Source: a virus. From it: a stretch of 31,364 nt of DNA. The stretch spans positions 1-31,364 of IMG/VR virus record IMGVR_UViG_3300030102_005261. One strand, given 5' to 3'. Shown here piece by piece: positions 5,414 to 31,364 of the stretch. Made by a program: the position numbers and the translations under genes. The notes under the pieces were generated by a model. It was not told where the DNA came from. It ran no database searches and saw only the letters and a list, made by a program, of their open reading frames with translations. Each line of letters opens with the position of its first letter. Position 1 is the stretch's first letter.

Positions 5414-5414
5414 T

Positions 5415-9099: not shown

Positions 9100-9118
9100 C
9101 AATTAAAATTACAAAATT

Positions 9119-10639: not shown

Positions 10640-10648
10640 ACTATTTTT

Positions 10649-10685: not shown

Positions 10686-10707
10686 TAATTTTATTATATA
10701 TTATATT
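10686..10707 (+). promoter_or_regulatory. A/T-only leader after the terminator, possible promoter
   Basis: The bases up to the start at 10708 are only A and T and end ATATATTATATT before ATGGCA, nearly the same as the leader at 7815-7842. If the preceding hairpin stops most transcripts, a promoter in or near this stretch would be needed for the tail genes, but no consensus box can be shown. Confidence 0.25.
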
Positions 10708-11541: not shown

Positions 11542-11547
11542 TCAAAC

Positions 11548-11584
11548 TGTAGAGCGGTCGCCCTACGGGGCGATCGTAACTACA
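11548..11584 (+). other. GC-rich intergenic RNA hairpin without U-tract
   Basis: The arms TGTAG-A-GCGGTCGCCC (11548-11563) and GGGCGATCGT-AA-CTACA (11568-11584) make a 10-bp stem with two G-U pairs plus a 5-bp lower stem, separated by a 1x2 internal loop, with a TACG tetraloop. It stands out in a very AT-rich region. The + strand continues with an A-run, not a T-run, and the - strand lacks a T-run on the far side, so it is not a normal terminator on either strand. An RNA stabiliser, processing site or attenuator is possible. Confidence 0.6.
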
Positions 11585-11597
11585 ATAAAAAAATATT

Positions 11598-12308
11598 ATG
11601 GTAAACGTAGATAGAGTATATCAAAGAGTTTTAGCTCTAGCTAATAAAGAGCAAAGAGGATATATAACACCAATAGAGTTTAACTTATTAGCTAATCATG
11701 CTCAGATGGATATATTTGAGCAATATTTTTATGATTTAAATCAATTTAGAAGATTAAACGGTAACGACACAATGTATGCTGATATGGTAGATATACTAGA
11801 AGAAAAAATTGAAATATTTCATAGTGGGCAAACGTTAACAGACGAAGAAGAACCATCTAACATATTTGATACTAAAGATCTTAATAATGAACTGTATAGA
11901 TTAAAACAAGTTAGATACAACCGTCCTGATGGAATAGGTGTTAAAATTGAAAAAACAATACACGACAAATTTATGCTAGCTCAAAACTCGCCTTTAACCT
12001 CACCTACTTTAATGAGACCAATTTACTATTTAAGAGGAACTAGTATAATTGTTGCTCCTAAAGAGATAACATCTATAGACGTTAATTACATTAGAAAACC
12101 AAATATAGTGCAATGGGCGTCTACTATGGCAGGAGACGTAGCTATATATAATCCAGACTTATCTGTTAATTTTGATTTACACGTTTCTGAAGAAACTGAT
12201 TTAGTTTTAAAAATATTATTATTAGCAGGTATAACTATAAAAGATCCTAGTTTATATCAAATAGCATCAGGAGAAGAAATAAAAAATATCCAACAAGAAA
12301 AACAATAA
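11598..12308 (+). CDS. Head-tail adaptor / tail tube A-like neck protein
   Basis: The product is 236 aa. The N-terminal part (VDRVYQRVLALANKEQRGYI, residues 4-23, followed by EFNLLANHAQMDIFEQYFYD) is helical and of a type common in marine podovirus neck proteins. The middle carries LYRLKQVRYN and the later part alternates beta segments with VNYIRKPNIVQW. Its place after the capsid genes and before the long muzzle-like protein matches the adaptor/gatekeeper position occupied by T7 gp11 or P22 gp4 in those phages. The fold cannot be confirmed by eye. Its leader is A-rich and starts right after the GC-rich hairpin. Confidence 0.6.
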   Translation: MVNVDRVYQRVLALANKEQRGYITPIEFNLLANHAQMDIFEQYFYDLNQFRRLNGNDTMYADMVDILEEKIEIFHSGQTLTDEEEPSNIFDTKDLNNELYRLKQVRYNRPDGIGVKIEKTIHDKFMLAQNSPLTSPTLMRPIYYLRGTSIIVAPKEITSIDVNYIRKPNIVQWASTMAGDVAIYNPDLSVNFDLHVSEETDLVLKILLLAGITIKDPSLYQIASGEEIKNIQQEKQ

Positions 12309-12312
12309 ATAA

Positions 12313-13794: not shown

Positions 13795-13797
13795 AAT

Positions 13798-16700
13798 ATG
13801 CCGGAAATTAAAAACAACTTTACTCAAGGTAAGATGAACAAAGACCTTGATGAAAGAATAATTCCAAAAGGACAATATAGAGATGCTTTGAATATAGAAA
13901 TTTCAACTTCAGAAGGTTCTGATGTTGGAACAGTTCAAAATTTATTAGGCAACTCTAGAATAGAAAATATTATTGGTGACAACTCAACTTGTGTAGGCGC
14001 TATATCAGACGAAAAAAATAATAGATTTTTTTGGTATGTTAAAAACCCTAACAAAGACGCTATATACGAATATAACACAAATACAAATATAATTACACCT
14101 GTTATTATAGATAAAAATTTAGATGTTTTAAAGTTTCAAGATGGTATAATAACGGGTATTAATATTATAGACGATATATTACTTTGGACTGATAATCATA
14201 ACGAGCCAAGAAAAATAAATATTGAAAGATGTAAGCTTGGTGTAGACGCTACTAGTCCAAATAACACTCACACAAAGCTAGTTGTAAACGAAGAAGTAAC
14301 AAGTGAAGATTTAAAAGAAGAGCATATAACAGTTATAAAGAAAAGACCTTTTCACGCGCCTTATATTAAAATTGACAAAAGTGTAGTTGTTGCCCCGAGT
14401 GTAGGTATAGCTTCTTTTAGCCAAGGAAATAACGGTTCTTTTAGAGCTATAAAAGGTGACAGTATATTTGTTTACGTGCCTAGAGTTTTAAGTGGTATTG
14501 GTTTAAATCTTGAGGTAGGTATAGATGTTACTTCTGGTGACAAAGTTGCTGTAGGTCAAGTTGGTACTGGTGGTTCTTTTCCAACTAACGCTGAGATTAT
14601 TGGAGAAATTGTAAATATAGAAGTAGAAGTTGGTAATCCTGGTTATAGCAAAATTGAAATAGAAGTAATAGACTCTTTGAACGAGGCAATACCTTTAGAT
14701 ACTGTTAACGATAGTAGTACAGATGCTGTTACCGGAGGTGTTGAAGCAAATATAATTAAGGTTGTAGATATAGATAGCTCAATATTTACAAATAAATTTG
14801 TAAGGTTTGCAACTCGTTGGAAATATGAAGACGGAGAATATTCTGCGTTTAGTCCTTTTACACAACCTGCTTTCTTAGCAAAAGCTTTTAGTTTCCATCC
14901 TACAAAAGACTCTTTTAACAAAGGTATGGAGAATAATTGTTTTAAAATAAATTTAACAAAATTAGTACCTCCTAACACACCTAGAGATGTCGTGCAGGTT
15001 GATATATTGTTTAAATTAGAAAATTCTACTACTGTCTATTCTATAGATAGTATAAAAAGAAACGATCCAAACGTTTCTGGTACAAGTGAAAATCATTTTA
15101 ATGCTTTAGAGTCTTTTATATCTATAGTTGAATCTGACGGAACATTAAATACTTCGTTTGACGTGTCTGGTGGTTACACTGGTACTTACACTATAAATAC
15201 AGAGAACATATACGCTGCGCTACCTTCAAATCAACTTTTAAGGCCGTTTGATAACGTACCTAAAAAAGCCTTAGCACAAGAAGTTACTGGTAATAGAGTT
15301 GTTTACGCGAACTATACTCAAGGTTATGATATGATTGATAGCAATGGAGATGTCGTAAAGCCAACTATATCTGTAGACTATAGACAGCGCTCTTATGACG
15401 ACAATGATGTTATTGATTTTAGTAGCGGTAAAAAATCGCTTAAAACTTTTAAAAATTATCAAGTAGGTGTTGTTTATGGAGATGAGTACGGAAGAGAGTC
15501 ACCAGTATTTACTAGTCAAAACGCTTCTTTAAAAATACCTTGGGACTCAGATGAAACAGCTACTTTTTTAGGTAATGCTAGTAGATCAACACAACTGTTA
15601 GCTTCGGTAAAAGGAAACCAACCTAGTTGGGCTAGTTATTATAAGTTTTTTGTAAAAGAAACTTCTGGGCAATATTATAATTTAACAATGGACAAGGTTT
15701 ACAGAGATGAAAGTGGTGAAAACTTATGGATTTCTTTTCCTTCTTCTGATGTTAATAAAGTTCAAAAAGAAGAATATATAATATTAAAAAAGAAAGTAAA
15801 TCTCAACGAGCAAGTACCTATAGAAAATAAGTACAAAGTAATTGATATTAAAAACGAAGCACCAGACTTTATAAAATTTGACTTAGAGCCTGTAGGTAAC
15901 GTTGGTGGCACGGTTGGTATTGTTCAAAATTTATATATTGGCTATAATACAGGTGTTAATATACCTGAGGCTGGTCAAAACTTAATAGAAATAAAGAAAA
16001 GTGTTTGGATAGAAAATGGTGGTGCTGAACTTACTTCTTTTGAAGAACCTTTAGAGCTAATATTTACTAAGCTGGTAGGTGCTTCTACGTTACAGTCTCA
16101 AACATACAAAATAACTAGTGTTACTGAGTCTAATAACGAAGCTAATTACAAAATAAGTTTAAGTAAACCTATAACTATAAATGATAATTGGGTTATTAGT
16201 GATACTACTTCTGTGACTCTAGAGCCTACACTTAGATTAAAAATAAATAGAAGATTGCCTAAAGAAGGCAACGAGTTTTCTGGTAGATTTTTTGTAAAAA
16301 TAATTTTAGATTTAACAGCTAAGCAGTTTTTAGAATCTTCCATAGTAACAAACATAACTTTTAGAAACGCATTGAGTATAGACTCTTTTTATCTTTTTGA
16401 TGAACGCGCGAATTCTGGCGCTGCTGCTACTACTGGTGTTGTAAATACAAATAACTCTCAGTTAACAGCTAGTGACACAAATTTAAACGTAGATATTCAT
16501 ACAGAACCAAAAAGTAATACTAAAGCAGCTTGGGAAACTCTTTACGAGTTTGGGACTGGTAGCACATCGCCTAGTTTTTTTATAGATCAATCGTATTTTG
16601 CTAGTGTACACCCTATTGATTACTCAGATTTAACTGGTCAAACTGGCTCTTTAGATGCTAGTACTAGTGGTAGGTTTGTTAAGGGCTCGGGTGGACCTAA

Positions 16701-19269
16701 TGGAGAACTTTTTGTTGACAGTGTAGAAGGTATTATAGACACATCACTAGTAAATGGTTATGCTGCTGGTTCTACTACAGAGAGTCAATCTGGTTGGGGA
16801 TTTAGAAGCTGGACAACTAAAAGCCGTGGACTCAATAACGCGGTTGCTTTTGTTGCTGACGGTGGTACTAATGAAATAGACCCTATATATAGCTCTGGCC
16901 AATACTACATGCATTTATCTTTTGGCCCTGTTGGTCAAAAACTTTGGACAAAGCTTAGTAGCTCTACTTTAGCTGTGCACCCAAATGGTGATGGCACGTC
17001 TTTTTGGCAAAGTATAAATCCTGGTGATTTAGTAACTGAAAATCCAGTTCAAATTGGGGCGATACAGAGTGGTCCATTAGCAACAGAAAATGCTACCGCT
17101 ATGTCATTTTTAGGTAATTATCCTGGTGGTGTAGCGTATGGAAGTGGTGCTGGTGGCGGTAGTTTTACAGCTTGGAATCCTAATTACGAAACTAATCCTA
17201 ATTTAGCAGATCAGCCTCAAGTTCCAAATCCAAGATACGCAGATCAATGGAAAATTCAAGATGCTGAAGATGCTGCTATAGCTGCTAAAATAATAGAAGG
17301 AGCTCAATTTAAAATAGAAGGATGTGAAGAAGTTTTTACTATAATAAAGTTTAGCGTTAAAAGACTTTATAATCACACTGCTTTTAGAAGAACTCAAAAC
17401 GAGTGGGATGGAACAAGTCAAGTTCAAAGACAACCCCTATCTGTTGAAACTCTATACAAAAGATATATAAACCTTGTAAATCAAGGAGGCTTTAACACGC
17501 CTTATCTTCCAGGTGTTGGAGGTATTGGTGTTGGTTCAGGTACACAAGTTGAGGATTTAGTAGATGCTCTAGAAGCTTTTGGAGATCCTTCTAATAGAAG
17601 ACTTTTATATATTTTAGAACTAGACAAAGATCCTAGAGATTATGTGAGTGGAAGTGAGTTTACTTTCAATGCTATTACTAGTCAAATGATAAGATTTGTC
17701 GAGCCTATTGTTACGACTGAAAATGTAGATGTTACAAATCCAGCAATATGGGAGACAGAAATAAAAGAAGAAACTGATTTAAATATATATTTTGAAGCTA
17801 GCGATGCAATACCTATTAAGTTAAATAAAGAAAAAGCTGTTTCAGAAATTTATGCTCCAGTAGGCTCAAGAGTTTTTTGTAATAAAAGTGGTTCGATACC
17901 AAGTTTTAATGATGTAAATGGAAATCCTTTAAGCTTTAAAGTAAGAATAAAAGATTGGCACAAAAATACAAATGATATTTATCAAATAGTAGAATTAACG
18001 CCTGGGTTAAATGTTATAGGAACAGATAACACGCTTTCAGGTCAAAGTGCCGAGTACTCAGGAAAAACATTAAGATTTTTTAAGGAAGACGGAAATGATA
18101 GCTTTGTAACTTCTAAAATATCGGCTTCTGATGATTGTGTACAGGAGATAGTAGGAAGTGTTATTACTAAAATTAAAGTTGGAACTTTTAACTTTGCTAA
18201 AATGCAAGGCTTAGGCTATTATGATAACTTTTGTTTTGGAAACGGTGTAGAGTCAAGTACTATTAGAGATGATTTTAATGCCATGAGTATAGCCAAAGGT
18301 GTTAAAGCTTCTTCTGTTATACAAGAAGATTACCAAGAAGAAACTCGTAAAAACGGATTAATATATTCTGGTATATATAACTCTACTAGCGGTATAAATA
18401 ACTTAAATCAGTTTATACAAGCAGAGAAAATAACTAAAGATTTAAATCCTACTTATGGTAGTATACAAAAGTTATTTCAAAGAAGAATAGATTTAGTTAC
18501 TCTTTGTGAAGATAAAATAGTTAAAATACTTTCAAACAAAGACGCTTTATTTAACGCTGATGGTAATGCTCAGTTAGTAGCTACAAACAGAGTTTTAGGG
18601 GATGCAAATCCTTTTATTGGTGATTATGGAATATCTACAGATCCAGCTTCTTTTGCTAAAGAGTCTTACAGAGCTTATTTTACAGACAAGCAAAGAGGTG
18701 CTGTTATTAGATTATCTATGGATGGTTTAACGCCTATATCTGAGTCTGGTATGAGGCAACATTTTAAAGACGCTTTATCTAGCAGTAATAATATTTTAGG
18801 TACTTACGACGTTTATAAGGGAGAGTATAATTTAACTATTGACAACAAAACCGTTTCTTATAGTGAAAAAGTTAAAGGCTGGACTAGTTTTAAATCTTAT
18901 ATACCAGACTTTGGCGTAAGTTCTTCTAATAGCTACTACACATTTAAAGAAGGTAAAGCTTATAAACACCACGACGATAGTGTTAATAGAAACTTTTTCT
19001 ATGGAGATCAATTTAACTCTACTATAAATGTTATTATAAATGATCAACCAGCTTTTATAAAAAGCTTTAACACAATAAACTACGAAGGTACTGATGGTTG
19101 GGGTGGTGCTGTTATAGTTACTGATCAACAGTCTGGCACAATTTCAGATTTTGTTGAAAAAGAAGGTAAGTACTTTAATTATATAAAAGGAAATAATGAT
19201 GATATTGATACAAAAGCATTTAACTTTCAAGGAATAGGTCAAACAATAGGAATAGAGTATAATATATGA
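13798..19269 (+). CDS. Long tail tubular/stabilisation (muzzle-like) protein
   Basis: The product is 1823 aa. It opens with IKNNFTQGKMNKDLDERIIP and GQYRDALNIEISTSEGSDVG, the usual head of phage nozzle proteins in which a QG-(L/V)-D-P-like segment precedes an R-(D)AxN motif (T7 gp12, P22 gp10 and crAss muzzle are functional parallels). The body is beta-rich, and the C-terminal ~250 residues have propeller-like turns such as VKGWTSFKSYIPDFG and YYTFKEGKAYKHHDD. Residues ~870-1170 form a Gly/Ser-rich block (SGRFVKGSGGPNGELFVDSV and others) that looks like an inserted domain. It would form the distal tube through which DNA leaves. Its TGA overlaps the next ATG by 4 bases (ATGA). Confidence 0.65.
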   Translation: MPEIKNNFTQGKMNKDLDERIIPKGQYRDALNIEISTSEGSDVGTVQNLLGNSRIENIIGDNSTCVGAISDEKNNRFFWYVKNPNKDAIYEYNTNTNIITPVIIDKNLDVLKFQDGIITGINIIDDILLWTDNHNEPRKINIERCKLGVDATSPNNTHTKLVVNEEVTSEDLKEEHITVIKKRPFHAPYIKIDKSVVVAPSVGIASFSQGNNGSFRAIKGDSIFVYVPRVLSGIGLNLEVGIDVTSGDKVAVGQVGTGGSFPTNAEIIGEIVNIEVEVGNPGYSKIEIEVIDSLNEAIPLDTVNDSSTDAVTGGVEANIIKVVDIDSSIFTNKFVRFATRWKYEDGEYSAFSPFTQPAFLAKAFSFHPTKDSFNKGMENNCFKINLTKLVPPNTPRDVVQVDILFKLENSTTVYSIDSIKRNDPNVSGTSENHFNALESFISIVESDGTLNTSFDVSGGYTGTYTINTENIYAALPSNQLLRPFDNVPKKALAQEVTGNRVVYANYTQGYDMIDSNGDVVKPTISVDYRQRSYDDNDVIDFSSGKKSLKTFKNYQVGVVYGDEYGRESPVFTSQNASLKIPWDSDETATFLGNASRSTQLLASVKGNQPSWASYYKFFVKETSGQYYNLTMDKVYRDESGENLWISFPSSDVNKVQKEEYIILKKKVNLNEQVPIENKYKVIDIKNEAPDFIKFDLEPVGNVGGTVGIVQNLYIGYNTGVNIPEAGQNLIEIKKSVWIENGGAELTSFEEPLELIFTKLVGASTLQSQTYKITSVTESNNEANYKISLSKPITINDNWVISDTTSVTLEPTLRLKINRRLPKEGNEFSGRFFVKIILDLTAKQFLESSIVTNITFRNALSIDSFYLFDERANSGAAATTGVVNTNNSQLTASDTNLNVDIHTEPKSNTKAAWETLYEFGTGSTSPSFFIDQSYFASVHPIDYSDLTGQTGSLDASTSGRFVKGSGGPNGELFVDSVEGIIDTSLVNGYAAGSTTESQSGWGFRSWTTKSRGLNNAVAFVADGGTNEIDPIYSSGQYYMHLSFGPVGQKLWTKLSSSTLAVHPNGDGTSFWQSINPGDLVTENPVQIGAIQSGPLATENATAMSFLGNYPGGVAYGSGAGGGSFTAWNPNYETNPNLADQPQVPNPRYADQWKIQDAEDAAIAAKIIEGAQFKIEGCEEVFTIIKFSVKRLYNHTAFRRTQNEWDGTSQVQRQPLSVETLYKRYINLVNQGGFNTPYLPGVGGIGVGSGTQVEDLVDALEAFGDPSNRRLLYILELDKDPRDYVSGSEFTFNAITSQMIRFVEPIVTTENVDVTNPAIWETEIKEETDLNIYFEASDAIPIKLNKEKAVSEIYAPVGSRVFCNKSGSIPSFNDVNGNPLSFKVRIKDWHKNTNDIYQIVELTPGLNVIGTDNTLSGQSAEYSGKTLRFFKEDGNDSFVTSKISASDDCVQEIVGSVITKIKVGTFNFAKMQGLGYYDNFCFGNGVESSTIRDDFNAMSIAKGVKASSVIQEDYQEETRKNGLIYSGIYNSTSGINNLNQFIQAEKITKDLNPTYGSIQKLFQRRIDLVTLCEDKIVKILSNKDALFNADGNAQLVATNRVLGDANPFIGDYGISTDPASFAKESYRAYFTDKQRGAVIRLSMDGLTPISESGMRQHFKDALSSSNNILGTYDVYKGEYNLTIDNKTVSYSEKVKGWTSFKSYIPDFGVSSSNSYYTFKEGKAYKHHDDSVNRNFFYGDQFNSTINVIINDQPAFIKSFNTINYEGTDGWGGAVIVTDQQSGTISDFVEKEGKYFNYIKGNNDDIDTKAFNFQGIGQTIGIEYNI

Positions 19270-20549
19270 AAAAAATAAAAAGCTTTGAAATAGACGAATC
19301 AGACATGTCTGCTTTAGCGCAGTCTAGAGTTTTTTCAGTATCAGGAGATGAAGGCGCTGTATTTAATTTAACAGTAACAACTCCAACTAAGTTTTATAAT
19401 TTTGTTAATAAGACTTTTCAAACTTCACAAAGCAGTGAAACAACTTTGTCTAACACTAGATTAGACGGGGGTTTGTTTATTGGAGATATAGACTTTCCAG
19501 CCGATGCAGATGGAGAGGTTTATACTTTAAATTTAATAGCACTGCCACATTTTGAAACAGAAATAGATTCGGCAATACAAGACCTTAATAATATATTTTT
19601 AACTAGAACTATAACGCAAGTAGCCGATGTTACAATTACATTTCAATCAAAACCAACTACAACCGCTAATTTTGAAGGTAGCTCACACTCTAGAACAGCC
19701 ACAGCAACTCAATCGCCAACTGTAACAACACCTGTAACAGTTGATATTGATTGGGAATTTGAAAATGCAGCAACTGATGCAAAAGGTTTTGGTTTTATTC
19801 CTGTTGCTACATTAAGAAGAGAAAACGCAGATTCTTCGTTAGGGCCTTCTGTACCTGTAGATGATTCTAGTTTTTATGCGGGTGGCAGTATAGTTATAAA
19901 CGACACTATATCAGACGATGGCGGTGGAAGTAGTCATTTTAATTATGTAGTAGATACAATATCTGATGTTTCAGTAGGAGACAAAGTTGTCAGCGTTTCT
20001 TCTGGTAGCTTAAGCGGAACTCCTACTTTAACAAGAGCTGCAATTTTTGCACAAGACACTAGATCACCAAACAAGCCTTTTATAAAACTTAGTAGTGGAC
20101 AAGTTTTTGCAAATGGCGTTACTCTTAATACTTTTTCATTTGGTATTAATGGAATTAAAAAAACTACTGGTATAGATATGGTTATAAATGAAATGACATT
20201 AACTCAAACACCTTTAACAAAAACAGTTAATGGAGCCGTAAATAACTCTACAACCATAACTTTAGCTGGTACTTATGGTATTAGTAGAGGTGCTTATTTA
20301 GAAGGATTTGGCATGGATAATAGCACTAACAATCCTATAACTGAAGTTGGTTCACCAGGCGCGTCTTCCGGAGAAGTAACCGTAACAGTAGCGCAAACAT
20401 TAAGCGCAGGAACAGTTTTAAACGTTGAAGGTAGTAGCAATAAATACACTGTAAAAGGTAGTATTACAATAAATAAATTTCCACAGTCTAACACTACTGT
20501 ATTTTTAGATTTAGACTCTATATTAACATTAGGAACACAATCACCGTAA
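19266..20549 (+). CDS. Beta-rich tail protein, possible tail appendage
   Basis: The product is 427 aa, Thr/Ser/Val/Asn-rich, with many short beta segments and no membrane span. It starts in an ATGA overlap with the long muzzle-like gene, suggesting the two are made in fixed ratio. Residues ~205-245 (DTISDVSVGDKVVSVSSGSL) and ~315-400 (TTITLAGTYGISRGAYLEGF and following) look like small repeated beta-sandwich modules similar to those in the capsid protein and the protein at 1219. No depolymerase or lectin motif is recognised. A tail hub or appendage subunit is the likeliest role, by position. Confidence 0.55.
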   Translation: MKKIKSFEIDESDMSALAQSRVFSVSGDEGAVFNLTVTTPTKFYNFVNKTFQTSQSSETTLSNTRLDGGLFIGDIDFPADADGEVYTLNLIALPHFETEIDSAIQDLNNIFLTRTITQVADVTITFQSKPTTTANFEGSSHSRTATATQSPTVTTPVTVDIDWEFENAATDAKGFGFIPVATLRRENADSSLGPSVPVDDSSFYAGGSIVINDTISDDGGGSSHFNYVVDTISDVSVGDKVVSVSSGSLSGTPTLTRAAIFAQDTRSPNKPFIKLSSGQVFANGVTLNTFSFGINGIKKTTGIDMVINEMTLTQTPLTKTVNGAVNNSTTITLAGTYGISRGAYLEGFGMDNSTNNPITEVGSPGASSGEVTVTVAQTLSAGTVLNVEGSSNKYTVKGSITINKFPQSNTTVFLDLDSILTLGTQSP

Positions 20550-20551
20550 TT

Positions 20552-20971
20552 ATGGCAGACAGAATAAATTTTAACCACCCAATAAACGATTCAGCTCAAG
20601 TAGGAGATATACTTTATTTTGCTAGCGTTAGTCCTGTTGGTGAAAGTCAAACAAACTCACCTATTACAGAAATAGGACCAATAACAGCTATAGGAGAAAA
20701 CTTTGTAGAAGTAAACGGTAACGCTCCAGCTAATTTTACCCAACAACAAATAGAGACAGGTTTTGTAACTGTTCAAGTTGTAGATGAAAATGGAGACCCT
20801 GGCACTGCTTCAGTTCCTGTTGCGCCGCCGTTATTTATGTTTAGAAAAAATGCAAAAGCAAACGTATCTACTTTGTTAGGCTACTTTGCCAATGTAAAGA
20901 TTACTAACTCTACTAATCAAAAGGCAGAGCTATATAGCGTTGGGTCTGAAATATTTTTAAGTAGTAAATAA
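20552..20971 (+). CDS. Small beta-rich virion protein, role unknown
   Basis: The product is 139 aa. The N-terminal half is beta-rich (QVGDILYFASVSPVGE, then ITEIGPITAIGENFVEVNG) and the C-terminal half carries LLGYFANVKITNSTNQKAEL and ends VGSEIFLSSK, a type of ending I associate with small marine phage virion proteins. It follows the previous stop after two bases, so it belongs with the tail genes. No catalytic residue set is visible. It may sit on the tail or connect tail and internal proteins; neither can be decided. Confidence 0.6.
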   Translation: MADRINFNHPINDSAQVGDILYFASVSPVGESQTNSPITEIGPITAIGENFVEVNGNAPANFTQQQIETGFVTVQVVDENGDPGTASVPVAPPLFMFRKNAKANVSTLLGYFANVKITNSTNQKAELYSVGSEIFLSSK

Positions 20972-21010
20972 TAAGTAAAAAGTGTAATTATACATAAAAC
21001 AAATTAAATT

Positions 21011-21865
21011 ATGGCAAATAAAAATTCAAAATCATCACCAAACAAATTTATTAGTTTGCTTTTTGGAGGAGCGGCTAGAAGACGAGAGCAAAGAGCTGCT
21101 AACGAACAGTATGAATTTTGGTTAGATGAATTTGCAGAACAAAAATTTAATAATCCTTATGAAGGCGTAAAAAATCCTTACGAAGACATGGAAAATGTTT
21201 ATGAGGATGCTAAAGTAAACTTAAAGGCTGCAGATTACGCAAGAGAACAATCACAACAAAACATGGCTAATATAATGAATAATATGCAAGCTTCTGCTGG
21301 ATCTTCTGGTATAGCTGGGCTAGCACAAGTATTAGCTAACCAAGGTGTTGAACAAGCTAGAAAACAAGCTATAGATATAGGAGAGCAAGAACAAGCAAAT
21401 CAATTAAGAGCTAGAAGAGAAGCTGGTAGGTTAGATCAGTTAGAAAGAGAAGGTGAGCAAAAGAGAGATTTATTGATGAGAAAAGGTCAAGCTCAAGTAG
21501 AAGAGTTTGAAAGACAACAAGAAGTAAAGATGTTAGAAATGGCTGGTGAAAGAAAAAGTGCCGCTGACGCCGCTAGAGATAGAGCTAGAGCCGCAGGTGA
21601 TGCGTTTATTTCTGCCGCTGTTTCAACTGCAATACCTGGTCTACCATCTGATATAAGATTAAAAGAAAATATAGTACGCACAGGAACTTCAGACTCTGGA
21701 ATACCAATTTATACATTTAACTACAAAAACAATAATCAATCATGGTCAGGTACAATGGCTCAAGACTTAATAAGCATGGGTAGACAAGACGCTGTAACTG
21801 TTATGAATAATGGCTACTACGCTGTTTATTACGACATGATAGATGTTGATATGATTAAAAATTAG
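21011..21865 (+). CDS. Internal/ejection-type coiled-coil protein with C-terminal peptidase S74 chaperone domain
   Basis: The product is 284 aa. Residues 10-35 are basic. Residues 48-68 hold three N-(P/V)-Y-E heptapeptide repeats. Residues ~70-130 are Ala/Gln/Gly-rich (GSSGIAGLAQVLANQGVEQA) and ~115-198 a long charged coiled coil, as in podovirus internal virion proteins. Residues ~213-284 match the intramolecular chaperone/peptidase S74 domain: SDIRLKENI (213-221), YTFNY (234-238), GTMAQDL (247-253), AVTV and a closing YYDMIDVDMI. The expected Ser-Lys autoproteolysis pair is in place as S213 and K218. S74 domains normally trim tail fibres; here the attached protein is not fibre-like. It ends in TAG and is followed after two bases by the next gene. 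Confidence 0.7.
   Translation: MANKNSKSSPNKFISLLFGGAARRREQRAANEQYEFWLDEFAEQKFNNPYEGVKNPYEDMENVYEDAKVNLKAADYAREQSQQNMANIMNNMQASAGSSGIAGLAQVLANQGVEQARKQAIDIGEQEQANQLRARREAGRLDQLEREGEQKRDLLMRKGQAQVEEFERQQEVKMLEMAGERKSAADAARDRARAAGDAFISAAVSTAIPGLPSDIRLKENIVRTGTSDSGIPIYTFNYKNNNQSWSGTMAQDLISMGRQDAVTVMNNGYYAVYYDMIDVDMIKN
21152..21214 (+). repeat. Three tandem heptapeptide-coding repeats
   Basis: Residues 48-68 of the S74-tailed protein read NPYEGVK, NPYEDME, NVYEDAK: three head-to-tail 7-residue units with N, Y and E fixed. The DNA units (21 bases each) have diverged more than the protein, suggesting selection on the peptide. Confidence 0.7.
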
Positions 21866-21867
21866 TT

Positions 21868-22695
21868 ATGAAAAGAGATATAGAAAGACTAGAAAGATAT
21901 TATGAAAACGTACCTTATGGCGAAAAGTCTAGGGCTGTAGAAATACATGGTTTAAAAAATCAAGAAAGAATTAACAACTACGTCGCTAGATTAGTAAAAG
22001 GTCATAGCGAAGCTATATCAAAAGGCGATAAAGCAACCGCTTCAAAAATACAAACACTTATATACCATATAGATAAAGAAGTTGCTAATGCAGAGGTTAT
22101 GAAACAAGAACATGCTGCTGGTTTAAGATCTACTTCTAATTGGGCTGATATGACTTTTATGGATAAAGCTATGTTAGAACAAGCAGAAGTTAATTTTAAT
22201 GAAGACGGTAAAATGACTTTTACAGCTGAAGATCCAAGAACAGGCATAACAAGAACAGAGACTATAGAATCTATGTCTGCTAATTTTGAAGAAATAGGTG
22301 ATTGGATGCAACCACTTATGAAAGCTAAACAAGATCTTCTTGCCGCTAGAAACGACAGGGGTAACCCACCGCCTTTTGATATTAATTATTTTACAAATAA
22401 TTTAATAAAAAATAATTGGAAAAGTATCGTGGCAGATAAAGACCCTACGTTAGATCCTAACGGTCCTTCAAGAGGATATAGATTACAGCTAATGTTATTA
22501 GAAGCAGCTGATCAAGAAGGCAATTTGCCAGATGATTTTAATATAGATAAAAATTCTTTTGATCCTACAATAGATGATAGAATATTTAAAAATATATCAG
22601 AAGAACTAAAAAGAGTTTTTTATGGCTCTAAACCTAATACAGAAGAGCCTCAAACAGAAGCTCAAAAACTAATGTCTAGACTAGACAATAAATAA
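21868..22695 (+). CDS. Helical protein of probable ejection module, function unknown
   Basis: The product is 275 aa, mostly helical and charged. Residues 1-90 form long helices (IERLERYYENVPYGEKSRAV, then VARLVKGHSEAISKGDKATA), a short beta-like stretch follows (MTFTAEDPRTGITRTETIES, ~residues 111-130), and the rest is helical with an acidic Gln/Pro-rich end. There is no signal peptide, membrane span or catalytic motif. It lies two bases after the S74-tailed protein and 13 bases before the giant protein. The three-gene string after the tail genes resembles the internal virion/ejection protein sets of podoviruses, which is the basis for the suggested role. Confidence 0.6.
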   Translation: MKRDIERLERYYENVPYGEKSRAVEIHGLKNQERINNYVARLVKGHSEAISKGDKATASKIQTLIYHIDKEVANAEVMKQEHAAGLRSTSNWADMTFMDKAMLEQAEVNFNEDGKMTFTAEDPRTGITRTETIESMSANFEEIGDWMQPLMKAKQDLLAARNDRGNPPPFDINYFTNNLIKNNWKSIVADKDPTLDPNGPSRGYRLQLMLLEAADQEGNLPDDFNIDKNSFDPTIDDRIFKNISEELKRVFYGSKPNTEEPQTEAQKLMSRLDNK

Positions 22696-22708: not shown

Positions 22709-25700
22709 ATGAGTAAAAACTCAACCACTCCATTAAAACATACCGCAGATCCTGCGCATAAAAACATTTCAAAAGAAGAGCATATTGCTTTACACGGCGG
22801 TGATGTTGAGGCGGCTGGTTATAAAAAAGAAAAACCTCAAACAGTTACAATAGGTGACAACGAAGCTGATTTATTATTTAAATCTCTTACGGACTCTTCT
22901 GCTTATACAAATGAAAAAGTACTTAAGGCTAGAGAGAAAGATCAAAAATTAAAAGCACAAAGAGAAAATAAAAAACAAGAGTTAAAAGTTAAAACTATTA
23001 AAAACGAGCGTATACAAAAATACGAAGACTCTGGTTTGTACGATGAAGAAGAGTTAAATATAATTCAACAAGAAATATTAAGCACTCCTTTTGTTATACC
23101 TGAAGTTTCTCAAGAACAATTTACAGAGTTTAAAAAAGCAGAAGTTTTTAATAAAATCTTTAAACCTTCAGACATAATGTTAACTGGAGCTAATTTTGAA
23201 ACTGTAGATTTACTTTCTAAATTTTTAAAATACGATGATACATATAAAAATATTGAAGAAGAGTTTGACGCTGTTGTTTCAGACATAAATAGCGGTAATA
23301 TTAAATATGATGAGTTTGAGGGTATCATTAGAATAGATAGCAACACGTTATATCCATTTGTGTATCCACAAGAAAGCGCGATTATAGGTAGTGAAATATA
23401 TATAGATAAAGCTACAGGTGAAATTATAGATAAGTCGAGTTTAACTCGTAAACAAATTATGATGTTAGATAGTGAAAAAGAAATATTTGAAGCTATTGAA
23501 CAGGGTAAAGAAATAGATCAGAGTGTTTTTTACAATACAACTGTAGACGCGGATGGCCAAGAAATAATAGATGGTTATAATTATTTTGCAGAAGATCAAA
23601 AACAAATTTTAAGTTTACAAGAGTACGAATATTTATTTGAAAACTGGGTTAAAGCTACTGATCCAAGTATTGATTTAGAAGAAATTAGTATAGAAGAAAA
23701 TTTAAAATTAAGAAAAAGTTTTAACGATCAAGGTGGTTTTATAGATGGTGAAACTTATATGAGAATTTATAATCAAAAAGTATTTAAAAAACAATATCAA
23801 AATCAAGGTGTAATGGATTTTGGTACAAATAGTGAAACAGATATAACAGGTAACCTTCGTCAAATTACTAAGGCTTATGAAGATTTAGCTCCAAATATAC
23901 AGACGTATGTTTTAGATAGAGCAAGTTTACAGACGTGGAAAAACGATTATTCAGTTGTATACTCTCCGTTAACAAATCAAGGCGCTTTTTTAAAAAATAT
24001 CTCAGGTGAAAACGATTTTGTTGGAGATTATATTTATAGACTTGATCAAAATGTTTTTCTTCCAAACGAAGAAATTACAAGTTCTGTAGAGCAATTTGAT
24101 GAGTTTATAAAAAATTATAATGCTTTAGCTGATGATTATAGAGGCGATTTGACTCTTTTAAACAATGCATTTAATTTAGACGAGATGCGTAATTTAAGAA
24201 GAGGATTATCAGCGCGATACCAAACTCAAGACGCAAAATTAAGAGCAGATCTTGAAATTACATCTGCTGTTGAAAATACTTTTAATGATCAATTAGAAGG
24301 ATCTGGATACACTATTAAAGTAACAACTAAAAATGGAACTGTAACTTTTGACTTAATGAAAGAAGGAGAAAATGTACTTTCTTCTACGTCTAACGGTGTA
24401 AAAAGTCCAGACACAGAAGTTTTAAAGCATATAGTCGAAAATATAACTTCTCAAGAGCTTACCGCTATAACTAAAAAACAAGTAGTAGATCCTATCAAAG
24501 AAATACAGCAAGGAAAGAAAGAAAGATTTGAATCAAATGTTAGGGATTTAACAGAAAAAGAAGTTGTAGATGACTATTTTGAAAATTTATTTATTCCTAC
24601 AATAACTGTCTCTAGAGGCAGATATAATTTAACTACTGAAAATAAAGAAGCAGGTGTTATAAATTATATTAAAAATCAATTAGCGTCTGGTAATGAAATT
24701 AATAAAGATGAGATACGTACAATAGTTAGATCATATAATAGGCTAGAAGACGGGTCTTATATAAACGAAGTAACAGATAAATATTATGAATTTGGTATTT
24801 TAACTAGAGATGAGTATAATAAAAACAAGCAACAATCAAGAATTGATTTAGCAGACAGAAAATCAAAAACTTGGGCCAAAAAAACAGCTGAAAAAAATGG
24901 TTACAGTCAAACATTTGATTATTCTACAAATAAACATATAGTTAATATAGACGGAGAAGAACAAGTTGTTAGTGGTAATACTTATAGAAAGTATCAAGAT
25001 TTAGTAGTAAAAGAAAACATTAAAGAAGTCTCTAACTTTTTTGATGAAAAGGATGGTTTTGTAGAGCTTAGTAAAAAAGCAGCAAAAAATGGATATTCTT
25101 TAGTTTTTGAGCAAAATGGTAGATTACTTAAAAATACTGATGAAGACTTTAATGATTTGTTTGAACCTGGCATGCCATTTAAATTTATCCGCGCAGAGTG
25201 GGAAAGAGAAGGTGATGAAACTAAAAGTTTTTCTTTAATAGAGCTAGGCGAAGATAAAGATGGTAATATTATTTATTTAAACGATAAAATTCAAGAGCTT
25301 GAAACAAATCACGAAACTATTATTAACGAGCTTCAAGAGTCTTTTTTAGATTATCGTAACAATGTGTATGATTCTTTTGAAGCATCAGATTTATTAGACA
25401 TATCTTTGTCTCAGCAGGGTATAGAAAGAGACTACTCAACTATATGGTCCGAAAGATTTGGCAATGGTGTTGATGGTGTTTTTTATAGTATACCAGCCTT
25501 GTTTGGTAATGAGTTTTCTCAAAATATACTAGATAGAAACGAAGCAGACGCTAGAACTCAAAGGCAATTTAAATGGGGTGAAGATGCTTGGTATCAAAAC
25601 GCTGGTTTAGTTTTTGCTGATCAAGGCGCTAATATGTTGTTTTTTATAGGTACTATGGGTACTGGTAGTTATTTTAATTTAGCAAGAACAACGTCTATGT

Positions 25701-28700
25701 ACGTGGCTTCTGGTGGTGTGGGTCTTCAAGAAGGTGGTAGAACTCATACTAGACTTTTAAATAATAAGAAAAACGCCTCTATTGCAGATCAACAAATTAA
25801 AGAATTACAAGCTTCTTTGAAAAAAGGTATTATTGGTAAAAATTATTTTGATAAAAGAGTAGAGCTTCTTAATGAGGTTGTTGCTCTCGGCGATTTAGAA
25901 CCATGGCAACACTGGGGTACCGTTGGTAGTTCTATTGCTTTTGAAGCTGGTTTTACTGCTCTTTTTGGTAGAATGGGTATAGGTAGAGTGAGTACTGCTG
26001 ATAGATTTGTAAATGCTTTTGTTAACGCAGGAGCTAGTAGAAATGTAGCTAATTATAGTGGCGTTAAGCAAATATGGAACAGCGCTTTAACTATGGCAAA
26101 AAGTGCTGGAGGTGAGGTTATTGAAGAAGAAGCAATATATATATCTACACAGCTTTCAGACGCTTTGTTTACAGGTACAGAAGTTGATCTTAGTCAAATA
26201 AATAAAGTTGCTATTGACGCGGCTATTATGTCAGGTGGTACCAACGCTTTATCTCTTACGTACGATGGTTTTATGAATCATGGTACTAGAAAAAAGTTAG
26301 CAGAAAAAATTGGATTTCAAAGTACTAAAATAAAGAATTACTCAGATGATATAAAAGAATTACAAAGAAATACAAAAATAAATAAAAAAGATAGAGACGA
26401 ACAAATAGAAAATTTAAAAACTTTAAGATTAGATGCTATAAATAAAAGATCTATGCTTATTGGAGAAGCAGAGATAGAGGTGTTAGGTTTAGATGAAGAG
26501 TCTCAATTAGCTATTTTACAAAACTTTAGTACATTATATAATCTTCACGAGCAAGCTGGTATATATCAAAAAGAAAATTTATCTGAAGCTTCTATCAAAG
26601 CTAGAATAGATTTTCATGTGCAAAAATTAAATAAAGAAGAAGCTGGCTCTGGTGACGCTTGGTTAGAAAATTACGAAACTCAAAAGAACAAGGTAGAAGA
26701 AATTAGTGAAAACTATAACGAAGAAACAGCTATAAATGCTTTGTATGGAGGAGATGTGCAGAAAAGAAATAAAGTTATAGATCGTATAAAAAGAAACAAA
26801 AGTTGGTCTTCAAAATACGAAAAAGCAAACTCTAAACAAAGGCTTAAATTAGAAATGAACTTCATGTACGAAGAAAATTTAAGAACTAATGCTAACGCTG
26901 TAAAAAACGATGCTAACATAAAAGAACAAGTAGAACAAGAAGTTTTTAGCGAAAGAGATGAAACTGGTAAAATAACAGAAAGACTAAATCAAGAGCAGTG
27001 GAAACAAAAAAATAATAAAAAAAGAATATCTAGCAGTCAAAAACAAGAGTTAGACACTTGGTATAATCAAGTTGCTAGAACAAGAATATCAACTAATACT
27101 GGTAGAGATATTACTACTTTTGAAGAAGGTCAGATAAACGCTGAAAACATTATTAAAAAAGTTAAAGAAGACACAGGTAAAGATTTAGTTATAGTTTATG
27201 ATGATAACGTAGAAACGCTAATTGAAAAGTATATATTTCCTAAAGGAGGAGCTGGTCCAACAATAGGCGGTATGAGCGCTCAAGAAAAGGCAGATGTAAT
27301 TAACGCTCTTAAAGATGGAAATGGCGCTATTGTAGGAAATAAGTTTTTAACTGTAAATCCTAATGCTAGAGCTCAGTTAAATTCTAAAGACGCCTTAAAT
27401 AGAAACAAAGCTTTTATAGGAGCTGTTTGGCTTCATGAAACTGGTCATTATTTAGATAACTCTACAAAATCTAGATCAGAGCTAAATGAAAAAGCGTTTT
27501 TATTATCTAAAGGTTTAACAGAAAAAGGCGGTGTAGTTTCCATTATAAACGAACAAGCATTAAGTATATTAAATCAAAAAGGTATTAAGGTAGATGGCAA
27601 GGCAGTTACTAACGTAGAACAAGTTTATAATAGACTAAAAACAGAAAAAGATCAACAAATTATAAACGAAATAAATACGTTTCTTGACGAATATATTAGA
27701 GAAACTGAGTTTACTTTACAGAGTAGAGAAAACGATTTTATATATACCAAACTATTAAACGAAGGTAGACGTTTTAATAAAATTAGAAGTTGGAAAGGTG
27801 ACTATACAATTAGAAGTGGTAGAGACGCTATATTTGAAGTGGTTAGTTATATACAAGCTTTTAGAAAAGGTGAGTTGTCAGCTGCTTATAAATCACAACT
27901 AGAAAGAGCAGGAGGAAGAACTGATTTAGTTGGTGACGAAAGTAAAATACAAAAATCTAGTCAAGTTGAGATAAACAAAATAGTAAGAAATGAAAACAAA
28001 GAAGTTGTTACTAAAGAGCAATACGATAGAGTAAATGTTAATGACGCCGCAATGCTGCTAACGCCTGAAAACGAAAGCTTAAATGGTCTTATTGTAGATT
28101 TAGGGTTTAAAATAGAAGGTAATAACGTTTATGGTTTTTCAAAAAATGAATTTATACAAGCCGTAAAAGACCAATTAAGCACGGCTGTAATAAACTATAA
28201 TCCAGAGACGTTATATAAAAATGTAGCCCAAGGAGATTTGTCGGGTTGGTTGGCTCTTCATATAATTCTTAAAAAACCTGGTGTAGTAGATGATTTTAAA
28301 AAGAGAAGAGAAGTTATTGACGCGGCTGGAAAACCCGTAGAAGACCCAGAACGTATTGAGACTCAAGAAGGAACTGTTATATTTGCTAAAAGACTTGGAT
28401 TTGAAGAAGATGTTGTTCGTAAAGATGAAAATGATCAAGACATAACTAGAAATGAGTTTGATTTAATAATAGAAGGTGCTTTTGATGAAATAATAAAAGC
28501 AAATCCAAAGTCTTATAAAGACGTTAAAGATCTAGTTAAAGGAGGTGTTTTAGTGCAAGTGCTGAACAAAGTGGCAGAAGAATTTGGTGTTAATCCAAGT
28601 AAATTAATAAATGATACATCGTTAACTGTAACTGAAAGAAGATCTATACAGACAAAAATAAGATCTCTTACAGCTAGAACTTTATTAAACGCTCTGCCTG

Positions 28701-31364
28701 AAGGATTTAACAACGTAGCTGAGTCTACAGGTTTACCTAACGTTTTATTAAACGCTAAAAATCCAGAAACTGGAGAGCCAAATTTATTATATACTAAACA
28801 AGAAAAAAGAGCTAAAACAGGTGTAAAACAAAGAGTTGGAAGAAGATTTATATTTCCGCCAAAGAAAAAAGACAAAGGTGGCGCTGGCCCTTTTTTACAA
28901 GTAATGAATTTTGTTGACAATATAAACGAATCTCACTTTTTAAATTTATTTGGTATAACACCTGTAGGAGTTGAAAGTAAATTTAGAACAGAAGATAGAA
29001 GCGTTGATAGTCCGTTGAGGGCTATTGTGGTGCAAGTTGCTGCATTAGTAGCTAATCAGTCTACAAGAAAAATAGCTAACGAGCGAGGATTATTTGGTTT
29101 AGAAACTATAGCTAGTGGTAAAGCAGATGTTCAATATAGTAAAGCTATTTCATTATCTAACATACAACAATTAATAAGCGATTATGATAACGGTAGAGAG
29201 TTGTTTATACAGTCTTTAAACTTATTAGGTGTAGGTAAAGTTGCTCGTAACCAAGAACAATTTAAAAGTTTGTTTAACCGTGCATTAGATATAGCATATC
29301 CAAATGTAAAATGGGATTATGTTGTAGACGGAAAATCTATTAATTATAGAACTAAACTTTACAATGAGTATAATAAATACAGAAAAGACTTTGTTGAAAG
29401 ATATTTGCCTTACGAAAAAAATTTAGATTTAGAGTCAAAATATGATCTCTCAGATTATTTAACGTTAGCTTCTATGCAAGACACAGATCTTATAATATCT
29501 CAGATATTTAATATAGAAGAAGGTATAACGACTTGGGTGGAAAACGAAATTAACAGAGAGAACCAAAGATCTTATAATAGAGCTCTTATTCCAGATTATA
29601 TAAAACTATTAAATAAAAGAGGTAAATTCAACAAACAGATAATTAGTTCTGCTAAAAAATTAAATGTTACACCAGCTGAACTTCAAGCTTTGATACAATT
29701 TTCATTTTTAAAAAATGCTTTTGAAGCTGGATTTGACAAAGACTCTAAAGGAAAATACAGAGGCTCTCAATCTATATTTAAAAATAAAAGTTTTTATTTT
29801 GAAAACTTTTTAAAATTAATAGCTCCAAATTTAGAGTCTATTGTAAGAAAAAAGACTACTTTACAAATAACGATTGACGGTAAAACAGAAGAAATACAAA
29901 AGCCTGAGCATTATAACTATATTAACAAACAAAAGACAGAAAAACAACATTTATTATCTTTTACAGAAAAACAAATTGAAGATCATGTAAGTGGAAAAAG
30001 TAAGATAAAACTACCTAAAGAGTTAATTAAAGAAATGCAGCTAAGAGAACAATTAGCTGAAGAAGCAATACAATTTACAGATGATATATATGCTATTGGC
30101 GCTAATATAGCTAAAGATCTTAATAGTGATTATAACAAGTATAACTTTGCTGTTTTAATTGATCAGTTCAACAAAGATATGAAGACGCCTCTTAGAATAG
30201 GTGCGCCTGCAATGTGGTTAGCTTTAAATCCTCCAACAACGTCGCTTAACGATGAAAATGGTAAAAGAAATTTTGAGTGGGAGCATGGTGGACCAGCTGC
30301 AAAAATAAACATTATGTTTATTGAAAAACATTGGAAAGGTGGAGATGTAAGCTTAGATAACATAAAGAAAACTTTTCAAGTAGGTGTTTTACATAGAGAC
30401 TTTAACGATAACGTTGGAAGGTTTTTTAAAAGAAGTATGAACTTTGATTACGAAATAGGCGATTCACCAGTTGGAAGATGGAACAATAGTTTACTTTTAG
30501 GTGGGCCTGCTCATTTATTATTTAATTGGAAGACAGGTGAAATAGCTGGACAAAATCACGTTAATTATTACAAGCTAACTGACAATTATAACAAAGGCAT
30601 GCAGCAGAGTAAAGCTGTTAAAAACTCTAGATTAATAGATAAAAACACTAAAAGTAGAGGTATGTCTGCTTTTGATTTTGATGAAACATTAATAGACAAA
30701 GGTGAGAACACTATTATAGCTACTAAAGGTGATGATGTAGTAAAAATAAGCTCTAGAAACTGGCCTATAGACGGCCCTCGTTATACTAAAGAAGGTTACG
30801 AGTTTGATTTTAGCGATTTTATAAATGTTAAAGGAGGTGTTGAAGGGCCATTAATGCAAAAATTTAGAAACAGAATAGCTAAGTACGGTATTGAAAACAA
30901 CTATATACTTACCGCTAGACCAGCTGATTCTGCACCAGCAATACGGGCTTGGTTAAAAACGCAAGGTATAAATATGCCAATAGAAAACATTACTGGTTTA
31001 GGTAATAGTACAGGCGAAGCAAAAGCTATGTGGATAGCTGGTAAATTTTCGGAGGGCTACAACGATATATATTTTGTTGACGATGCGCTACCTAATGTTG
31101 AGGCCGTTAAAAATATGATGCAGCAACTAGATATTAAAGGTAGTTCTGTACAAGCTAAAATACAATTTAGTAAAAACTTAAATAACGAGTTTAACATTAT
31201 ATTAGAAAAAACAACAGGTATTGATGCTCAAAAACGTTTTTCTAATGCACAAGCTAAACTAAGAGGTAAAGGCTTTAAATTTACAGGTTTAATACCATCT
31301 TCTGCTCAAGACTTCCAAGGTTTGATGTATAGCTTTTTACCAACTGGTAAAGAAGGTGAAAAAG
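22709..31364 (+). CDS. Giant multidomain protein with zincin and HAD domains (3' truncated by window edge)
   Basis: I read this frame open from the ATG at 22709 to the window end: 2885 codons without a stop. The N-terminal ~950 residues are charged and helical with no recognised domain. Residues ~960-1190 hold Gly/Ala-rich hydrophobic stretches (ANMLFFIGTMGTGSYF; VGSSIAFEAGFTALFGRMGI) that may insert in membranes. Residues ~1205-1450 are coiled-coil-like. A zincin motif HETGH is at 1576-1580. Around 2060-2110 is another conserved-looking region (FLNLFGITPVG). A HAD phosphatase domain spans ~2652-2800: FDFDETL (D2656, D2658), T2735 in ILTARP, K2772, and FVDD (2789-2792). Such peptidase-plus-HAD giants fit the polyvalent proteins of phages, thought to be injected with DNA. 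No tape-measure-like repeats are seen. Confidence 0.85.
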   Translation, partial: MSKNSTTPLKHTADPAHKNISKEEHIALHGGDVEAAGYKKEKPQTVTIGDNEADLLFKSLTDSSAYTNEKVLKAREKDQKLKAQRENKKQELKVKTIKNERIQKYEDSGLYDEEELNIIQQEILSTPFVIPEVSQEQFTEFKKAEVFNKIFKPSDIMLTGANFETVDLLSKFLKYDDTYKNIEEEFDAVVSDINSGNIKYDEFEGIIRIDSNTLYPFVYPQESAIIGSEIYIDKATGEIIDKSSLTRKQIMMLDSEKEIFEAIEQGKEIDQSVFYNTTVDADGQEIIDGYNYFAEDQKQILSLQEYEYLFENWVKATDPSIDLEEISIEENLKLRKSFNDQGGFIDGETYMRIYNQKVFKKQYQNQGVMDFGTNSETDITGNLRQITKAYEDLAPNIQTYVLDRASLQTWKNDYSVVYSPLTNQGAFLKNISGENDFVGDYIYRLDQNVFLPNEEITSSVEQFDEFIKNYNALADDYRGDLTLLNNAFNLDEMRNLRRGLSARYQTQDAKLRADLEITSAVENTFNDQLEGSGYTIKVTTKNGTVTFDLMKEGENVLSSTSNGVKSPDTEVLKHIVENITSQELTAITKKQVVDPIKEIQQGKKERFESNVRDLTEKEVVDDYFENLFIPTITVSRGRYNLTTENKEAGVINYIKNQLASGNEINKDEIRTIVRSYNRLEDGSYINEVTDKYYEFGILTRDEYNKNKQQSRIDLADRKSKTWAKKTAEKNGYSQTFDYSTNKHIVNIDGEEQVVSGNTYRKYQDLVVKENIKEVSNFFDEKDGFVELSKKAAKNGYSLVFEQNGRLLKNTDEDFNDLFEPGMPFKFIRAEWEREGDETKSFSLIELGEDKDGNIIYLNDKIQELETNHETIINELQESFLDYRNNVYDSFEASDLLDISLSQQGIERDYSTIWSERFGNGVDGVFYSIPALFGNEFSQNILDRNEADARTQRQFKWGEDAWYQNAGLVFADQGANMLFFIGTMGTGSYFNLARTTSMYVASGGVGLQEGGRTHTRLLNNKKNASIADQQIKELQASLKKGIIGKNYFDKRVELLNEVVALGDLEPWQHWGTVGSSIAFEAGFTALFGRMGIGRVSTADRFVNAFVNAGASRNVANYSGVKQIWNSALTMAKSAGGEVIEEEAIYISTQLSDALFTGTEVDLSQINKVAIDAAIMSGGTNALSLTYDGFMNHGTRKKLAEKIGFQSTKIKNYSDDIKELQRNTKINKKDRDEQIENLKTLRLDAINKRSMLIGEAEIEVLGLDEESQLAILQNFSTLYNLHEQAGIYQKENLSEASIKARIDFHVQKLNKEEAGSGDAWLENYETQKNKVEEISENYNEETAINALYGGDVQKRNKVIDRIKRNKSWSSKYEKANSKQRLKLEMNFMYEENLRTNANAVKNDANIKEQVEQEVFSERDETGKITERLNQEQWKQKNNKKRISSSQKQELDTWYNQVARTRISTNTGRDITTFEEGQINAENIIKKVKEDTGKDLVIVYDDNVETLIEKYIFPKGGAGPTIGGMSAQEKADVINALKDGNGAIVGNKFLTVNPNARAQLNSKDALNRNKAFIGAVWLHETGHYLDNSTKSRSELNEKAFLLSKGLTEKGGVVSIINEQALSILNQKGIKVDGKAVTNVEQVYNRLKTEKDQQIINEINTFLDEYIRETEFTLQSRENDFIYTKLLNEGRRFNKIRSWKGDYTIRSGRDAIFEVVSYIQAFRKGELSAAYKSQLERAGGRTDLVGDESKIQKSSQVEINKIVRNENKEVVTKEQYDRVNVNDAAMLLTPENESLNGLIVDLGFKIEGNNVYGFSKNEFIQAVKDQLSTAVINYNPETLYKNVAQGDLSGWLALHIILKKPGVVDDFKKRREVIDAAGKPVEDPERIETQEGTVIFAKRLGFEEDVVRKDENDQDITRNEFDLIIEGAFDEIIKANPKSYKDVKDLVKGGVLVQVLNKVAEEFGVNPSKLINDTSLTVTERRSIQTKIRSLTARTLLNALPEGFNNVAESTGLPNVLLNAKNPETGEPNLLYTKQEKRAKTGVKQRVGRRFIFPPKKKDKGGAGPFLQVMNFVDNINESHFLNLFGITPVGVESKFRTEDRSVDSPLRAIVVQVAALVANQSTRKIANERGLFGLETIASGKADVQYSKAISLSNIQQLISDYDNGRELFIQSLNLLGVGKVARNQEQFKSLFNRALDIAYPNVKWDYVVDGKSINYRTKLYNEYNKYRKDFVERYLPYEKNLDLESKYDLSDYLTLASMQDTDLIISQIFNIEEGITTWVENEINRENQRSYNRALIPDYIKLLNKRGKFNKQIISSAKKLNVTPAELQALIQFSFLKNAFEAGFDKDSKGKYRGSQSIFKNKSFYFENFLKLIAPNLESIVRKKTTLQITIDGKTEEIQKPEHYNYINKQKTEKQHLLSFTEKQIEDHVSGKSKIKLPKELIKEMQLREQLAEEAIQFTDDIYAIGANIAKDLNSDYNKYNFAVLIDQFNKDMKTPLRIGAPAMWLALNPPTTSLNDENGKRNFEWEHGGPAAKINIMFIEKHWKGGDVSLDNIKKTFQVGVLHRDFNDNVGRFFKRSMNFDYEIGDSPVGRWNNSLLLGGPAHLLFNWKTGEIAGQNHVNYYKLTDNYNKGMQQSKAVKNSRLIDKNTKSRGMSAFDFDETLIDKGENTIIATKGDDVVKISSRNWPIDGPRYTKEGYEFDFSDFINVKGGVEGPLMQKFRNRIAKYGIENNYILTARPADSAPAIRAWLKTQGINMPIENITGLGNSTGEAKAMWIAGKFSEGYNDIYFVDDALPNVEAVKNMMQQLDIKGSSVQAKIQFSKNLNNEFNIILEKTTGIDAQKRFSNAQAKLRGKGFKFTGLIPSSAQDFQGLMYSFLPTGKEGEK

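What the first reader, a model, noticed from the sequence alone, without database searches (positions are those of the whole stretch)
22709..31364. Giant, probably virion-carried protein combining a zinc peptidase, a membrane-like stretch and a HAD phosphatase
One uninterrupted frame of at least 2885 codons follows the tail and ejection-type genes. It carries HETGH at residues 1576-1580 and a full set of HAD motifs at 2656-2792, plus long regions I cannot place in any family. Polyvalent proteins (large multidomain proteins with peptidase and other effector domains delivered with phage or plasmid DNA) are established, including zincin types. What this combination acts on in the host, and what the first ~950 residues do, is unknown. 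The rest of the protein lies outside the window.
Basis: partly seen in the sequence, partly recalled or inferred. Interest (0 to 1): 0.7.

Follow-up and report, generated by a model that had tools for sequence, protein, structure and literature searches.

The report
Giant phage ejection protein, swappable enzyme slot
A marine phage of Bacteroidota makes a 3,645-residue, probably virion-borne protein that always keeps a zinc-peptidase site and, just before a conserved tail end, has a slot where related phages carry a phosphatase, a kinase or both, which suggests a delivered, interchangeable tool for early infection.

Summary
The frame at 22709 runs past the window to a stop at 33646 (3,645 codons, one 10-N assembly gap at 31365-31374). 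They are not chance: among 106 non-redundant relatives from uncultured viruses, 105 have exactly one HExxH (about 0.9 expected in total), and an AlphaFold model gives a zincin topology around it. The HAD is supported by family profiles and fold search. The 'membrane-like' module (about 930-1260) is homologous to gp101 of Cellulophaga phages phi38:1/phi40:1, and phi40:1 gp101 is annotated from experimental MS/MS proteomics. The C-terminal fold is shared with phage giants named as 'large polyvalent protein' proteins. So the polyvalent, ejection-type reading is supported, though virion presence of this protein is inferred. New here: the HAD sits in an exchangeable slot. Relatives carry a Zeta_toxin/AAA_33 P-loop kinase there instead, or, in three cases including the window's nearest relative, a kinase inserted inside the HAD. 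No homology to the N4 virion RNA polymerase's zincin or C-terminal domains was detected. The first 900 residues match no known family. Substrates remain unknown.

The parts
22709..31364 (+). Giant ORF, residues 1-2885 of 3645; continues outside the window to the stop at 33646 across a 10-N gap (31365-31374)
22709..25495 (+). N-terminal region, residues 1-929: lineage-specific, no Pfam or PHROG family, essentially shared only with L003 (from residue 325)
25496..26488 (+). Membrane-like module, residues about 930-1260; homologous to phi38:1/phi40:1 gp101, Gundel_1 gp74 and elemo gp18
27176..27943 (+). Zincin-type metallopeptidase domain, residues about 1490-1745; HETGH at 27434-27448, candidate third ligand E1654 at 27668-27670
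28106..29158 (+). Moderately conserved helical region, residues about 1800-2150, function unknown
30674..31087 (+). HAD-type phosphatase core, residues 2656-2793 (exchangeable slot in the family)
31193..31364 (+). Start of the highly conserved C-terminal domain (residues about 2829-3485, mostly beyond the window); fold shared with phage polyvalent-type giants
21868..22695 (+). Late gene directly upstream (275 aa), no significant family
3197..22695 (+). Late block in which the giant gene is last: terminase, portal, major virion protein, 1823-aa virion protein and others; same order as in phi38:1 and elemo phages

Best explanation
A phage-type polyvalent (ejection-type) protein of a podovirus-like phage of Bacteroidota. 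Shown by sequence or structure comparison: a lineage-specific N-terminus, a membrane-like module, one conserved zincin domain, a helical middle, an exchangeable enzyme slot (here a HAD phosphatase) and a conserved C-terminal module. Inferred: it is packaged in the virion and ejected with the DNA; the membrane-like module engages the cell envelope; the zincin cuts the chain itself (or a host protein) during or after entry; this frees or activates the slot enzyme, which changes phosphorylation of a host or phage molecule in the first minutes of infection.
For: One HExxH in 105 of 106 relatives, at a conserved place between the membrane-like module and the slot. Three strands, HExxH helix and Glu helix in the model. 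HAD motifs and folds. Slot content varies: HAD core in 69, P-loop kinase in 11, of which 3 have both, neither in 29. C-terminal fold matches over nearly the full length to phage giants named PolyVal ART / large polyvalent protein, 52 hits at E<=1e-3. Syntenic last late gene; phi40:1 gp101, which shares the membrane-like module, is annotated from MS/MS proteomics. Polyvalent proteins with zincin hubs lie beside late genes and are thought to be processed by the zincin (PMC5512222).
Against: No direct proteomics for this protein or for any member with the same C-terminal domain. N4 virion RNA polymerase, a zincin-bearing giant, is packaged unprocessed, so self-cleavage is not general (PMC5512222). 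phi40:1 gp101 lacks the zincin, HAD and C-terminal parts. Sequence-level Pfam LPD domains were not detected. PDB fold search with the whole zincin-bearing model gave no significant match.
Confidence: 0.66

Rival explanations
1. The zincin is not for self-processing: it is an effector peptidase that cuts a host protein, or it helps the phage cross the cell wall or envelope.
For: Iyer et al. list effector use as an option (PMC5512222). Full-length transfer of zincin-bearing N4 vRNAP, ArdC and TraC1 argues against obligatory self-cleavage.
Against: The domain is kept in 105 of 106 members while the neighbouring cargo varies, which fits a housekeeping role for the protein itself better than one specific host target.
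Confidence: 0.3
2. The slot is a nucleic-acid end-healing unit of polynucleotide kinase/phosphatase type, delivered to mend tRNA or DNA cut by host defence nucleases.
For: PHROG 'polynucleotide kinase' matches 16 of 33 HADs (best 2e-7); the only two HAD structures in a loose PDB profile search are mammalian PNKP, though not significant (E about 1); three members carry kinase and phosphatase in one nested unit.
Against: The kinase matches Zeta_toxin about as well as AAA_33 and one close viral protein is named UDP-N-acetylglucosamine kinase. Fold search favours Ceg4 and Lem4, Legionella effectors with a HAD fold. Most members have only one of the two enzymes.
Confidence: 0.2
3. The slot enzymes act on cell-wall precursors (zeta-toxin-like UDP-GlcNAc kinase, with the HAD as its counterpart) or on host phosphoproteins.
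For: Zeta_toxin above the Pfam cut-off; zeta-like kinases are known in polyvalent and MuF proteins (PMC5512222); HAD matches to Ceg4 and Lem4.
Against: No substrate-defining residues were tested; DUF2608 and HAD profile hits are weak and do not define substrate.
Confidence: 0.25
4. It is a purely structural internal-core or tail protein, and the enzyme motifs are relics.
For: Homologues are annotated as structural proteins; HAD is absent in part of the family.
Against: Invariant zincin motif and complete HAD motifs in 58 members show selection on catalytic residues.
Confidence: 0.1

Closest known systems
Phage-type polyvalent proteins (Iyer et al. 2017, PMC5512222)
   Same: Very large; unrelated enzyme domains in one chain; zincin hub; encoded with late virion genes; C-terminal fold shared with phage giants named PolyVal/LPD
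   Different: HAD phosphatase is not mentioned in that paper's main text ('phosphatase', 'haloacid' and 'hydrolase' do not occur); HAD/kinase exchange and kinase nested in HAD were not found described; no sequence-level LPD match
gp101 of Cellulophaga phages phi38:1 and phi40:1 (Pervagoviridae)
   Same: Same syntenic place as last late gene; homologous membrane-like module (iE 5e-30); annotated from MS/MS proteomics in phi40:1
   Different: 1691 aa, no HExxH, no HAD, no matching C-terminal domain
Gundel_1 gp74 (Tenacibaculum phage, Pachyviridae) and elemo gp18 (Flavobacterium phage)
   Same: Membrane-like module in both (iE 1e-41, 8e-31); HExxH in both, zincin profile match in elemo (iE 4e-11), C-terminal profile match in Gundel (iE 2e-10)
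   Different: No HAD motif; different middle parts
N4 virion RNA polymerase gp50 (Schitoviridae)
   Same: About 3500 aa, virion-borne, hydrophobic N-part, HExxH domain followed by a large helical C-terminal domain (PMC12633501)
   Different: No detectable homology of zincin or C-terminal domains (hhalign probability 1.9% and 0.1%); no Pfam family of any kind, polymerase included, hit here

Membership tests
Phage-type polyvalent protein | Several unrelated enzyme domains in one very large protein | tested here: met
   zincin plus HAD, kinase in relatives
Phage-type polyvalent protein | Encoded among late virion genes | tested here: met
Phage-type polyvalent protein | Shares modules with known polyvalent proteins | tested here: met
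   C-terminal fold, 52 hits E<=1e-3 including PolyVal/LPD-named giants; sequence-level Pfam LPD not found
Phage-type polyvalent protein | Delivered into the host with the DNA | not testable with these tools
   Only indirect: phi40:1 gp101 annotated from MS/MS proteomics
Zincin metallopeptidase | HExxH helix preceded by a small sheet, followed by a helix with a conserved Glu | tested here: met
   HExxH 61/61, E1654 95%, predicted strands 555-557, 600-603, 607-610 and helices 632-647, 710-731 of the model
Zincin metallopeptidase | Similarity to a solved or curated zincin family | tested here: inconclusive
   PDB profile 1c7k E=0.043 over the HExxH region; a few weak Pfam peptidase hits; PDB fold search of the whole model uninformative
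HAD superfamily | DxDxT, motif II Thr/Ser, motif III Lys, motif IV acidic pair | tested here: met
HAD superfamily | HAD fold | tested here: met
   On relative L004: best PDB fold matches by probability are HADs (6aok 0.99, 2w11 0.95), E-values 0.08-0.28
Polynucleotide kinase/phosphatase | HAD of PNKP type joined to a P-loop kinase | tested here: inconclusive
   phrog_415 hits, nested kinase in 3 relatives, not in the window protein; kinase also matches Zeta_toxin
N4 virion RNA polymerase | T7-like RNA polymerase module | tested here: inconclusive
   no Pfam hit of any kind in residues 1-2885; no direct comparison with the N4 polymerase domain was made
N4 virion RNA polymerase | Homologous zincin and C-terminal domains | tested here: not met
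   hhalign probability 1.9% and 0.1%

The most novel reading that the evidence does not exclude
The giant protein is a delivery chassis (membrane module, self-cutting zincin, conserved C-terminal module) with one cargo bay where phages swap phosphorylation enzymes, a phosphatase, a kinase or a kinase nested inside the phosphatase, released in the cell at entry to undo a host defence (for example mending cut tRNA ends or reversing a defensive phosphorylation).
Probability: 0.2. Interest if true: 0.78.

Novelty: new variant of a known kind. Interest (0 to 1): 0.5.

Why it matters
At least 572 relatives exist in IMG/VR, while tblastn of residues 1-2885 found no match among 50,697 phage records and the C-terminal part matched only Gundel_1, weakly, so a common marine phage protein is almost unseen in isolates. 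The fixed zincin beside a variable enzyme slot makes a testable case for programmed release of cargo from an ejected phage protein, and the kinase nested inside a HAD phosphatase looks like an unusual enzyme layout.

Tried and rejected
Whole-protein Pfam and PHROG scans and tblastn of residues 1-2885 in phage records found nothing useful. A viral scan with residues 1-2885 failed because its probe peptides were not conserved; the C-terminal part worked. PDB fold search with the 1196-residue model gave only helical-bundle noise. N4 vRNAP homology was tested by profile-profile comparison and not found. N-terminal parts of 78 members gave no recurring Pfam family. An attempt to fetch T4 Pnkp for a profile comparison hit the wrong part of the T4 genome and was dropped.

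Full report
Observation. The frame at 22709 is open to the end of the window (2885 codons). The source record is an IMG/VR virus record of 34,194 bases, and the gene goes on to a stop at 33646, 3645 codons in all. A run of 10 N at 31365-31374 explains where the window ends. The frame is kept across it; relatives have about six codons more at this point, so the N run is probably a placeholder. HETGH and the HAD motifs are at the stated residues.

Relatives. The C-terminal part (756 aa after the gap) finds at least 572 relatives in IMG/VR, and a second query from a distant member and a genome-contig scan add more. The genome contigs are mostly MAG bins of Bacteroidota. Isolated phages with related terminase genes are Cellulophaga, Flavobacterium (elemo), Tenacibaculum and Maribacter phages. 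In phi38:1 and elemo phages the last gene of the same late block encodes a large 'structural protein'.

Conservation. A MAFFT alignment of 61 full giants shows HExxH invariant, E1654 at 95%, and the C-terminal 2840-3485 as the most conserved part. In a wider set of 106 giants, 105 have exactly one HExxH, where composition predicts about 0.9 in the whole set. The HExxH lies 715-2002 residues (median 1221) before the C-terminal domain.

Zincin. An AlphaFold model of residues 940-2135 (mean pLDDT 68) places three short strands before the HExxH helix and the conserved Glu in a later long helix. This is the layout given for polyvalent-protein zincins by Iyer et al. (PMC5512222). Profile search against the PDB gives only a weak zincin hit (E=0.043) and whole-model fold search is uninformative, so the fold is well supported but not proven.

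Membrane-like module. Residues about 930-1260 form a module found in 63 of 106 giants at E<=1e-5 and, with iE 1e-30 to 1e-41, in phi38:1 gp101, elemo gp18 and Gundel_1 gp74. phi40:1 gp101, almost identical to phi38:1 gp101, is annotated 'based on experimental MS/MS proteomics analysis'. In the window protein itself the hydropathy of this stretch is modest.

The slot. The HAD core has all four motifs. DUF2608 matches 29 of 33 members and HAD families a few; PHROG 'polynucleotide kinase' matches 16; fold search of a relative (L004) puts HADs among the top PDB matches. In 106 giants the HAD core is found in 69, a P-loop kinase motif in 11 and neither in 29. The kinase matches Zeta_toxin and AAA_33 above Pfam cut-offs in every P-loop member scanned. 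In L003, L033 and L174 the kinase sits inside the HAD, between the DxDxT and LTAR motifs; L003 and L174 align over 364 residues at 49%. L003 is the window's closest relative (64% over residues 940-2135), so kinase insertion or loss is recent on that scale.

C-terminal domain. The model of HAD plus C-terminal domain of L004 (pLDDT 75) matches viral predicted structures over nearly its whole length, including proteins named PolyVal ADP-ribosyltransferase, ART-PolyVal-like and large polyvalent protein-associated, and Gundel_1's structural protein. No Pfam LPD model is hit by sequence.

N4 comparison. N4 vRNAP has a similar order (hydrophobic N-part, cargo, HExxH domain, helical C-terminus; PMC12633501), but profile-profile comparison finds no homology and the window protein hits no polymerase or other Pfam family. 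It works like it at most in layout.

Conclusion. A phage-type polyvalent protein, a new variant with a HAD/kinase slot. Packaging, self-cleavage and substrate are inferred.

Noticed in passing
window 419-811: Small 130-aa protein with its own HExxH (LIHEMVHMKD), weak Peptidase_M91/M90 and PHROG hits
   Followed up: partly
window 822-1214: Protein with a near-threshold match to GTA_holin_3TM, probably a holin
   Followed up: partly
window 21011-21865: C-terminal Peptidase_S74-like intramolecular chaperone signature, sub-threshold
   Followed up: partly
L087 (phage ctfjg026) giant gene: Terminase 63.5% identical to the window's, yet its 3859-aa giant is not found by tblastn with the window's giant and has two zincin-like regions (HEFGH at 1615 and 2500)
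   Followed up: partly
L063:8189-9814 and L075:7886-9811: The slot appears to hold another domain shared by these two members, no Pfam hit
   Followed up: no
L128:3311-11986: The one giant among 106 without any HExxH
   Followed up: no
window 31365-31374 (just outside): 10-N scaffold gap inside the gene; relatives suggest about six more codons there
   Followed up: partly
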